Source: Nostoc sp. UHCC 0926 (lineage in GTDB: Bacteria > Cyanobacteriota > Cyanobacteriia > Cyanobacteriales > Nostocaceae). Taken from it: 64,000 nucleotides of DNA. The translations under genes and the position numbers were made by a program. The notes under the pieces were generated by a model. It saw only the letters and a list, made by a program, of their open reading frames with translations. It did not search any database and had not been told where the DNA came from. Positions 50,492-52,780 of the stretch are shown piece by piece. The stretch covers positions 930,001 through 994,000 of the forward strand of contig NZ_CP117772.1 of the NCBI RefSeq assembly GCF_028623165.1, in the 5' to 3' direction. Each line of letters starts with the position of its first letter. The stretch's first letter is position 1.

Positions 50492-52780
50492 TTAGTAAAG
50501 CGAATAATGCAATTCACCATTCTTCGACTTGGTTATTACAATATCGACCAGCATTGCCTTAACAGACTCCAGTACTGCCTTCTTTTGCGAGTTCTCCATC
50601 TTACTTAACCATGAAAACCTGATTTCTAGGTCAGCCGAAAGGATCTTCGCATCTGCATAAAAACCTCTCTCGATCAAGGTATCCAGAACCACCTTTTCTC
50701 CAGTTAAGATTTGGGCGGCCTTATTGAGAACACCATTGATGTTTTCTTCCCGATCCCATGCACGCGAGTGAAACTGCCACAAACACCGTTCTTGAATTAA
50801 TTTTGTGACTTCCGCAGCTCGCTCTTGAATGTATAACGCGATTTCGTTAGCTTGCTGTTGAACCTGTGGTGCAACTTCCTTAGCTTGTGGCTGAACCTGT
50901 GGTGCAACTTCCTTAGCTTGTGGCTGAACCTGTGGCGCAGCTTCCTTAGCTTGTGGCTGAACCTGTGGCGCAGCTTCCTTAGCTTGTGGCTGAACCTGTG
51001 GCGCAGCTTCCTTAGCTTGTGGTTGAACTTGTGGCGCAGCTTCTTTAGCTTGTGGCTGAACCTGTGGTGCAGCTTCTTTAGCTTGTGGCTGAACCTGTGG
51101 TGCAGCTTCTTTAGCTTGTGGTTGAACTTGTGGCGCAGCTTCTTTAGCTTGCTTTTGAACCTGTGGCGCAGCTTCCTTAGCTTGCTTTTGAACCTGTGGC
51201 GCAGCTTCCTTAGCTTGCTTTTGAACCTGTGGCGCAGCTTCCTTAACTAGCTGTTTGACCTCTGAAGTAACTTCTTTAACTTGCTGTTTAACCTCTGAGG
51301 TGGCTTCCTTAACTTGCTGTTGAATTAAAGAAACGACTTCCTCAGATAGGTCTTTGGCAGCTTTACCGTTACCATTGGTACTTACCGGATTTTGCTCATC
51401 ACGGATATCAATTTGAGCCAACTTCATCAAAGGTGAATAGATGGCATTGTACATATCACGTGCCATGTTCACAGCACCTTCAAAGCCCATATATGGACCA
51501 TTGTGGTAGCCATGACCATTCACATAAGGCAAGTGAAGTTTCTTCACCAAAGCACCCACCCGTGGTCCAGTCAACACCAAATCTGGCTTGACCATCTCTA
51601 GCACCTCGAAGAATTCGAGTTCATTGCCATCATCAATATAGATAGTCCCTTCTTCACCTCTGGCAATTACCTTTTCAAAATCCTCTTGGTGACCAAACTT
51701 CGAGGACATTGCCACGACGTGCATCCCCAAATCGTCTTCTAAGGCTTTGGTCCAGTGCCACAAACGGGGACCGCCTGTCCAGATACAGACCTTTTTACCA
51801 GCCAAGCGCTCTTTATACCAACCTAGCTTCGATTCATATTTAGCCACTTCTTCGGCAATCACAGCTTCGGCTCTGTCTTCAAGTCCAAAGAAAGCACCGA
51901 TTTTGCGTAACCCTTCCTTGGCATAGTCAAAGCCCCAGGTATCGACATCAATCCGGGGAATGCCATATTTTTTCTTTAATTCATTGGCAATGTAGCCTGC
52001 GGAGCGGGCACAGTTGGTCACATTCAACTGCGCTCTGTGCATGCCGCGTAATGAGTCATAAGTACCATTTCCGGTAAAATGGGCAATAATTTGGATGCCC
52101 ATTTTTTTCATGTACTTTTCCATCACAAAGGTATCACCTTGGATGTTGTAGTCACCAATCACATTAATCGTGTATGGGCTAGTAATCTCTGGCTCAAAGG
52201 TTCCTACCTTGTCTGTCATCCACCCCATGTTAAACACGTGGTGACCTTTGGATTGACTCACACCAGCAAAACCTGGACACTCAACTGTGAAGATGTCTAC
52301 ATCTCCAAGTTCTTTTTCTACTTCTTTGACTACAGGCTTGATATCATCGCCAATCAATGCTGTAGAGCAGGTGGTGTAGACCATCATCCGCTTAATCTCA
52401 GGAAATTCTGCAAAGGCTTCCAGCATCGCTTTTTTCAGCAGCTTTTCACCACCGAAGACAACATGCTGTTCCTTCATGTCCGATGACCAGACATATTTTA
52501 GTTGGAAGTTGCCATTGTCGCTGGGATAGCGTTTGGTGTGCCATGTATCATATGCACAGCCCACTGGTCCATGTATCAACTGAATAGTATCTTTCAGGAC
52601 ACCACCAATTACTAGCTTGGCACCACAATAGCTGCATCCGCGCTCAGATAATGAGCCGGGAATCGTTTCTACGTGGGCGCTAGGGAGAAACTGGGTTGTA
52701 TCTTCTCCTTTTTCTTTAATATATATGTGCTTTTCCCGTTCTGGAATCGATTCGTCGCACTTAAACAACTTCATTGGCAT
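50492..52780 (-). CDS. vnfDG: VnfDG fusion: alpha and delta subunits of vanadium nitrogenase joined by an 11-residue repeat linker
   Basis: 762 residues from ATG 52780; AAGGAG nine bases before it decides against the upstream ATG 52801. VnfD part (1-475): P-cluster Cys 49 (RGCSYCG), [17 protein letters not shown]; cofactor Cys in [11 protein letters not shown] and His in [11 protein letters not shown]; the TGGPRLWHW loop that marks V-type alpha subunits (carbonate-binding in the known structure). VnfG part (from about 650): [20 protein letters not shown] to the C terminus HYSLY, full length. Between them, degenerate repeats (480-512), then residues 513-644 are 12 units KE(A/V)APQVQ(K/P/Q)QA. 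Fused vnfDG is known in Anabaena; this long regular linker is the odd part. Reduces N2 to ammonia when Mo is lacking. Confidence 0.95.
50849..51244 (-). repeat. vnfDG: 33-bp tandem repeat inside vnfDG (12 units)
   Basis: Twelve 33-base units, in frame, near identical at the DNA level; coding AAG GAA GCT GCG CCA CAG GTT in most units. Three N-terminal units have K, the next eight P and the last Q at position 9; the two nearest VnfG read KEVA. Low divergence suggests recent expansion and likely length variation between strains. Confidence 0.96.

What the first reader, a model, noticed from the sequence alone, without database searches (positions are those of the whole stretch)
50849..51244. VnfD and VnfG are joined by twelve near-identical 11-residue repeats
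Seen: residues 513-644 of the fusion are KE(A/V)APQVQ(K/P/Q)QA twelve times, flanked by degenerate units ([33 protein letters not shown]), with complete VnfD and VnfG on either side. Known: vnfDG fusions exist in Anabaena; in Azotobacter the delta subunit is separate. Inference: the 11-residue period (three helix turns), Lys/Glu and Gln/Val spacing suggest a long amphipathic or proline-kinked tether that grew by unequal crossing-over of a 33-bp unit. It may set the reach of VnfG on the enzyme, bind a membrane or partner, or be neutral.
Basis: partly seen in the sequence, partly recalled or inferred. Interest (0 to 1): 0.82.

Follow-up and report, generated by a model that had tools for sequence, protein, structure and literature searches.

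The report
Stretchy repeat tether in vanadium nitrogenase
In this cyanobacterium two parts of the vanadium nitrogen-fixing enzyme are joined by a probably floppy tether that grew from copies of the small subunit's first helix and varies in length between relatives, while a near-identical second copy of the main chain carries a membrane anchor instead.

Summary
In detail: window 50849-51244 (minus strand) holds twelve 11-residue units between complete VnfD and VnfG. It is a family trait. Of 27 distinct fusion linkers read, 10 are short (38-50 aa) and 17 carry arrays (113-226 aa; window 213); array types form one group in the tree. Array units match the 11-residue motif of VnfG's own first helix in register at DNA level (57% against 24-31% off register), so the array grew from that helix by whole-unit duplication. 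Its centre is proline-rich and predicted disordered, its ends helical. Non-11 indels in relatives argue against a helical-phase function. Best reading: a flexible tether that keeps delta near VnfD but lets it undock during cofactor insertion, exact length nearly neutral above a floor. Outside the coordinates, the genome has a second vnfD, one base different over 460 codons, fused to a CAAD membrane anchor instead of VnfG (such duplicates are in print for lichen Nostoc). The two copies are homogenised within most genomes tested. Between two relatives the segment between the copies is inverted, changing which alpha chain adjoins vnfH. I did not find the array, homogenisation or inversion in print in the searches made.

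The parts
50492..52780 (-). vnfDG fusion gene, 762 aa from the ATG (769 aa from the TTG at 52801)
51395..52777 (-). VnfD domain (TIGR01860, residues 9-469 of the 769-aa frame); Cys257 and His423 present in ATG numbering (cofactor-ligand positions of A. vinelandii, recalled)
51365..51382 (-). STNGNG tract, of variable NG number in relatives
   Evidence: sequence; coordinates counted from the 769-aa frame
51245..51343 (-). three proline-free 11-residue units [33 protein letters not shown]; predicted helix at low confidence
50849..51244 (-). array of twelve proline-bearing 11-residue units, mostly predicted coil
50783..50848 (-). two native 11-residue units ([22 protein letters not shown]) that form the start of the VnfG helix
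50495..50815 (-). VnfG domain (TIGR02930, residues 663-769 of the 769-aa frame)
48561..49946 (-). vnfK (TIGR02932, 872.3 bits, just under its cut-off of 873.95)
46795..48333 (-). vnfE by order in the cluster; best family match nifE, 168.8 bits, under cut-off
44875..46218 (-). vnfN by order in the cluster; best family match nifE, 130.1 bits, under cut-off
55474..58212 (-). ABC transporter genes (ATP-binding, permease, substrate-binding), placed as vupABC by order and by similarity to the genes beside vnfD in L081/L082; name taken from papers

Best explanation
The array is a flexible tether between VnfD and VnfG in a cyanobacterial V-nitrogenase fusion. Shown by sequence: the array units are copies of the 11-residue motif at the head of VnfG; fusions without arrays carry two (or one) such unit, and one group of fusions carries long arrays made by whole-unit (33-bp) duplication. 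Shown: central units took up prolines while the end units stayed proline-free. Predicted: the centre is disordered and the ends are helical. Inferred: the tether keeps delta at high local concentration and still lets it undock, because attachment of delta in Azotobacter needs the cofactor or its precursor and loss of the G subunit from the Fe enzyme goes with loss of cofactor; a fused delta must be able to swing off the apo-enzyme and return. Inferred: above about 110 residues extra units hardly change local concentration, so unit number drifts by slippage or unequal crossing-over while a soluble, near-neutral composition is loosely kept.
For: In-register DNA homology of array unit and native VnfG units, 57.3% against 24-31% (34 comparisons, 17 arrays). 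17 array linkers of 113-226 aa and 10 short ones of 38-50 aa. Array rows on one side of a branch, 98/95 (10 array, 9 short rows). 9 of 17 core lengths in one class modulo 11. AlphaFold: coil at about 535-636 between helices 475-525 and 637-665. No Cys and 0-1 aromatic residues in 17 linkers, net charge -1 to +5. Ideal-chain estimate at an assumed 6 nm gap: 0.12 mM at 38 aa, 0.56 at 113, 0.46 at 213. Passages: PMC11938142, PMC10803253.
Against: No biochemistry here. The disorder call is borderline: 3 of 17 linkers fall on the folded side of the charge-hydropathy line, and the model is modest (mean pLDDT 64.7, pTM 0.54). Short linkers serve nine of 22 genomes with VnfD, so the array is not needed for a fused enzyme as such. 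The gap to be spanned was not measured. Unit pN/pS runs from 0.14 to 1.88 over 16 arrays, so sequence-level constraint is not shown. VnfG may be cut free after synthesis.
Confidence: 0.6

Rival explanations
1. Purely neutral expansion: a slippage-prone 33-bp unit lies in a permissive place and its number drifts with no effect on the enzyme.
For: Length varies from 113 to 226 aa among close relatives; pN/pS near 1 in several arrays; short-linker relatives lack the array altogether.
Against: None of the 17 array linkers measured is under 113 aa, although units turn over; window pN/pS 0.29 and L018 0.14; composition is kept free of Cys and nearly free of aromatics. A recent common origin could also explain the floor.
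Confidence: 0.25
2. Structured ruler or partner-binding helix: the 11-residue period makes amphipathic or coiled helices that set a distance or bind a membrane or protein.
For: The period is 11; weak similarity to apolipoprotein 11-mers (30.1 bits, cut-off 90) and YtxH (26.4, cut-off 37.5); end units predicted helical.
Against: 20 prolines in 12 units; centre predicted coil; non-11 indels or unit lengths in relatives such as L006 (13), L009, L146, L154; unit number not fixed.
Confidence: 0.12
3. Cleavable spacer: the array is a protease site and VnfG works as a free subunit.
For: Outside cyanobacteria VnfG is a separate protein (one search found 22 separate VnfG frames); disordered linkers are easily cut (general knowledge).
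Against: The fusion frame is kept open in the complete copies read; no cleavage motif was sought or is known.
Confidence: 0.08
4. Assembly artefact in repeat number.
For: Tandem units can be miscounted; some draft contigs (L126, L130, L156 among them) begin or end in or next to such arrays.
Against: 396 bp inside a 1.04-Mb contig; 6 distinct unit sequences; comparable arrays in two plasmid records.
Confidence: 0.03

Closest known systems
Fused vnfDG of Anabaena variabilis and relatives (PMC4284476, passages)
   Same: VnfD and VnfG in one frame, followed by vnfK, vnfE, vnfN.
   Different: The passages mention no repeat array. Short-linker relatives read here have 38-50 aa; A. variabilis itself was not read here.
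C-terminal insertion of cyanobacterial V-nitrogenase D subunits (PMC10803253, Extended Data Fig. 6 legend, passage)
   Same: Very likely the same extra C-terminal part, noted as differing in length and sequence from that of Fe nitrogenase.
   Different: The legend does not name it as VnfG plus linker nor mention repeats.
A. vinelandii VFe protein, PDB 5N6Y
   Same: Closest solved VnfD and VnfG.
   Different: Delta is a separate chain, no linker.
VnfD-CAAD duplicate of lichen Nostoc (PMC5987646, passage)
   Same: Same kind of second vnfD as at G000:C7:871075.
   Different: The passage does not mention homogenisation, inversion or descent from a fused vnfDG; its supplement was not seen.
AnfO (PMC11938142, passages)
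   Same: A domain on a flexible linker that acts during cofactor loading of an alternative nitrogenase; works like, not a relative.
   Different: A maturation protein with a glycine-rich linker, not a nitrogenase subunit.
Apolipoprotein and LEA-type 11-mer repeats
   Same: 11-residue period, rich in A, K, E, Q.
   Different: Below curated cut-off for apolipoprotein; no LEA family listed at E up to 10; many prolines.

Membership tests
V-nitrogenase alpha chain (VnfD) | NCBIfam equivalog TIGR01860 over its cut-off | tested here: met
   979.2 bits, cut-off 823.1
V-nitrogenase alpha chain (VnfD) | cofactor ligands Cys257 and His423 (A. vinelandii numbering, recalled) | tested here: met
   C and H at these positions of the ATG-numbered protein, which aligns to 5n6y_A without net shift
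V-nitrogenase delta chain (VnfG) | NCBIfam equivalog TIGR02930 over its cut-off | tested here: met
   141.9 bits, cut-off 141.7; narrowly
V-nitrogenase | binds FeV-cofactor and fixes nitrogen | not testable with these tools
   no biochemistry
cyanobacterial vnfDG fusion | VnfD and VnfG in one open frame before vnfK, vnfE, vnfN | tested here: met
   vnfK just under its cut-off, vnfE and vnfN by order
Apolipoprotein A1/A4/E 11-mer repeats (PF01442) | score over the curated cut-off | tested here: not met
   30.1 bits against 90
LEA 11-mer proteins | match to a LEA family | tested here: not met
   none among the families listed at E up to 10; HMMER filters drop most weak matches
CAAD proteins (second vnfD copy, outside the window) | PF14159 over its cut-off | tested here: met
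   81.8 bits, cut-off 30.7
CAAD proteins (second vnfD copy, outside the window) | located in thylakoid membranes | not testable with these tools
   shown for ValRS in PMC4893482, not for VnfD
invertible (phase-variable) segment | two orientations of a segment between inverted repeats | tested here: met
   G473 against G489, different strains
invertible (phase-variable) segment | both orientations within one culture | not testable with these tools
   needs reads or PCR

The most novel reading that the evidence does not exclude
Nostoc V-nitrogenase has two interchangeable alpha chains: VnfD with delta on a long tether, and VnfD with a CAAD anchor that may dock it at thylakoids beside ATP synthase. 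Gene conversion keeps the two bodies the same, and recombination between the inverted vnfD copies flips the segment between them, so that either chain can come to lie beside vnfH and its regulator. That would be a reversible switch between a free and a membrane-bound nitrogenase, with the two linkers as modular, freely growing joints.
Probability: 0.25. Interest if true: 0.82.

Novelty: new variant of a known kind. Interest (0 to 1): 0.52.

Why it matters
The role of the delta subunit of alternative nitrogenases is called elusive in PMC10803253. A natural series of fusions with tethers from 38 to 226 residues is a ready experiment on how freely delta must move during assembly and catalysis. 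The array also shows, with simpler states still in living relatives, how a tether can be built out of a subunit's own helix. The paired vnfD copies raise a testable question: does a membrane-anchored nitrogenase exist, placed where ATP is made?

Tried and rejected
Helical-phase function of the 11-mers: rejected as the main reading (indels or other unit lengths in L005, L006, L009, L146 and L154; prolines). The long tether evolved to serve the CAAD copy: no association seen (CAAD copy seen in 7 of 13 array genomes and 6 of 9 short-linker genomes, Fisher p 0.67); absence in drafts is not proof. Apolipoprotein or LEA membership: rejected. A second array of the kind in the genome: none convincing; five further places at E 5.6e-4 to 0.77 and 19-26% identity, the best with a stop in frame. 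Selection on unit sequence: mixed pN/pS, no firm conclusion; the script failed at its last step, the register test, which was redone. Upstream of the two vnfD copies an ungapped comparison showed no clear identity, while gapped BLAST aligned about 300 bp; nothing is concluded. One row (G472) compares a sequence with itself and is not counted. That call compared copies between genomes only within type (fused with fused, CAAD with CAAD). The tree used 19 of the 27 linkers' proteins: truncated frames, the interrupted L009 group and, through a narrow pattern in my script, L005 were left out; two Bacillota were added. A simple one-two-many series is not what the tree shows: the one-unit fusions nest among two-unit rows, so they more likely lost or blurred a unit.

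Full report
WHAT IS THERE. The frame at 50492-52801 on the minus strand encodes VnfD (979.2 bits, TIGR01860) and VnfG (141.9 bits, TIGR02930) in one chain. Between the domains lie twelve units of KE(A/V)APQVQ(K/P/Q)QA at 50849-51244.

HOW COMMON. A scan of genome contigs with the VnfD part gave 79 loci, the best 80 of 87 matches being kept. A VnfG match is found in 37 of 217 genomes of the family, 17 of 53 of the genus and 12 of 388 of an even draw from the order. VnfD at E up to 1e-120 is found in 22 of the 217. Part of the shortfall against 37 is explained by VnfG matches near contig ends (such as L126, L127, L130), weak partial VnfG matches (G399, G432) and one VnfG without VnfD in a 4.9-Mb contig (G312). 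I read 27 distinct complete linkers, from after SPLM to before the Cys of CLWQF: 10 of 38-50 aa and 17 of 113-226 aa; the window has 213 and L128 has 226. All 16 fused genes that the script found among loci L001-L082 are cyanobacterial by their titles; it found 24 separate VnfD and 22 separate VnfG frames in other loci.

WHERE THE ARRAY CAME FROM. For 17 arrays I compared the last array unit with each of the two native VnfG units. Mean DNA identity is 57.3% in register and 24-31% in the ten other registers (34 comparisons). Of seven short-linker fusions examined, five carry two native units in tandem (22-29 of 33 bases equal in register) and two carry one clear unit (8 and 12 equal). Stand-alone VnfG proteins of other bacteria have one such unit before CLWQF. 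A tree of 19 fusion proteins without linkers puts the 10 array rows on one side of a branch (98/95) and the 9 short rows on the other. With two Bacillota as outgroup, one gain of the array is the simplest story, but array loss in the short group is not excluded. The one-unit fusions nest among two-unit rows, so they probably lost a unit. Core length falls into one class modulo 11 in 9 of 17 arrays (p about 6e-5 allowing for 11 classes; related strains are not independent). Others hold small indels or other unit lengths, such as 13 residues in L006. Five adjacent pairs of units in the window are identical in DNA, which points to recent single-unit duplications.

SHAPE. AlphaFold with 50 sequences gives helix 475-525, almost no structure and pLDDT mostly under 50 over about 535-636, and a helix 637-665 that runs into VnfG. 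The model is modest (mean pLDDT 64.7, pTM 0.54), so it is used only for order against disorder. The twelve units hold 20 prolines. The 17 array linkers have no Cys, 0-1 aromatic residues and net charge -1 to +5; a charge-hydropathy line puts 14 of 17 on the disordered side, all near the line. Unit pN/pS is 0.29 in the window and 0.14 to 1.88 over 16 arrays.

HOW IT MOST LIKELY WORKS. From passages of two papers: attachment of delta in the Azotobacter V and Fe enzymes needs NifB-co or the cofactor (PMC11938142); in the Fe enzyme, particles with zero, one or two AnfG were seen, loss of AnfG after detergent went with loss of cofactor density and of its lid, and AnfG touches the reductase (PMC10803253); the VnfD C-terminus sits at the DK-DK interface (PMC10803253). 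A delta fused to that C-terminus must reach its site over the cofactor lid and, if the order of assembly holds in cyanobacteria, must be able to stay off while the apo-enzyme is loaded. A flexible tether does both. An ideal-chain estimate for an assumed gap of 6 nm gives 0.12 mM local concentration at 38 aa, 0.56 at 113, 0.46 at 213 and 0.44 at 226; at 2 nm short linkers are favoured and at 8 nm long ones. Beyond about 110 residues length should matter little at 4-8 nm, which fits the drift. Gap and chain model are assumptions.

OUTSIDE THE COORDINATES: A SECOND ALPHA CHAIN. The same genome has another vnfD at G000:C7:871075-872454(+). Over codons 1-460 it differs by one synonymous base, then diverges abruptly at codon 461. 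Instead of VnfG it carries direct repeats spaced 123 bp and a CAAD domain (81.8 bits, cut-off 30.7). It lies divergently beside a nitrogenase-reductase gene, with regulator-like and homocitrate-synthase-like genes beyond (named by my reading of the sequences, no family search). A VnfD-CAAD duplicate in lichen Nostoc was reported in 2018 (PMC5987646, passage), so its existence is not new.

THREE POINTS ABOUT THE PAIR that I did not see in the listings and passages read (paper searches; open-access papers only; supplements not seen). First, in 7 of 8 genomes tested the two VnfD bodies are closer to each other (0-65 of 1341 bases differ) than each is to the copy of its own type in any other genome of the test; the exception is G429 with 199. 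Second, the CAAD copy of Brasilonema (L008) keeps a VnfG remnant (PF03139, 35.3 bits, E 1.4e-8), so that CAAD copy descends from a fused vnfDG. Third, between G473 and G489 the outer flanks are collinear while the inner segment, G473 301318-325446, aligns inverted; both ends fall within the repeated vnfD copies or the few hundred bases upstream that repeat with them. This puts vnfH beside the CAAD copy in G473 and beside vnfDG in G489. G000, G468 and G472 have vnfH beside the CAAD copy, L003 and L004 too; L002, L005 and L006 have it beside vnfDG. In the window's genome the two copies also face opposite ways, 109 kb apart. CAAD anchors ValRS in thylakoids and binds ATP synthase, and in heterocysts the two overlap, enriched at the cell poles (PMC4893482, passages). 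That VnfD-CAAD is placed likewise is a guess.

DOES THE TETHER SERVE THE CAAD COPY? Of the 22 genomes, 13 have array linkers (a CAAD copy seen in 7) and 9 short ones; Fisher p 0.67 (classes). The two traits look independent.

STATUS. Shown: the array, its variation, in-register homology to the VnfG helix, grouping in the tree, the second vnfD, its near identity, one inversion between strains. Predicted: disorder of the centre. Inferred: tether function, near-neutral length, a switch. Unknown: protein size in cells, cleavage, docking, whether the inversion is live.

Noticed in passing
G000:C7:871075-873300 (L091 16055-18313), outside the window: Second vnfD, one base different from the vnfDG copy over 460 codons, fused to 41-residue repeats and a CAAD domain, beside a vnfH-like gene.
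   Followed up: yes
G473:C2:301318-325446 against G489:C2:395825-413646 (L193-L196): The segment between the two vnfD copies is inverted between two Nostoc genomes, so a different alpha chain adjoins vnfH.
   Followed up: partly
L008 residues 693-765 of the 901-aa frame: VnfG remnant before the CAAD domain; L013 has a similar-looking stretch (my reading).
   Followed up: partly
L123/L192 (G312:C1:3590829-3591158): VnfG with two native units and a short linker but no VnfD in its frame.
   Followed up: no
G472:C1:2871009-2872390 (L189); L009; L072; L069: Interrupted or shortened vnfD copies: a stop and overlapping frames in G472, repeated or missing parts in the others.
   Followed up: no
window 46300-46569, 34295-34477, 35669-35822, 30754-30921: Tandem arrays with a 21-base period or multiples of it, one of them between vnfN and vnfE.
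   Followed up: no
window 37615-41418: Three genes that look like a molybdenum hydroxylase (my reading of the sequences) near the vanadium cluster.
   Followed up: no
NZ_CP040273.1 and NZ_CP040289.1 (L081, L082): vnf clusters on plasmids typed as conjugative, with cytochrome c oxidase genes upstream.
   Followed up: no
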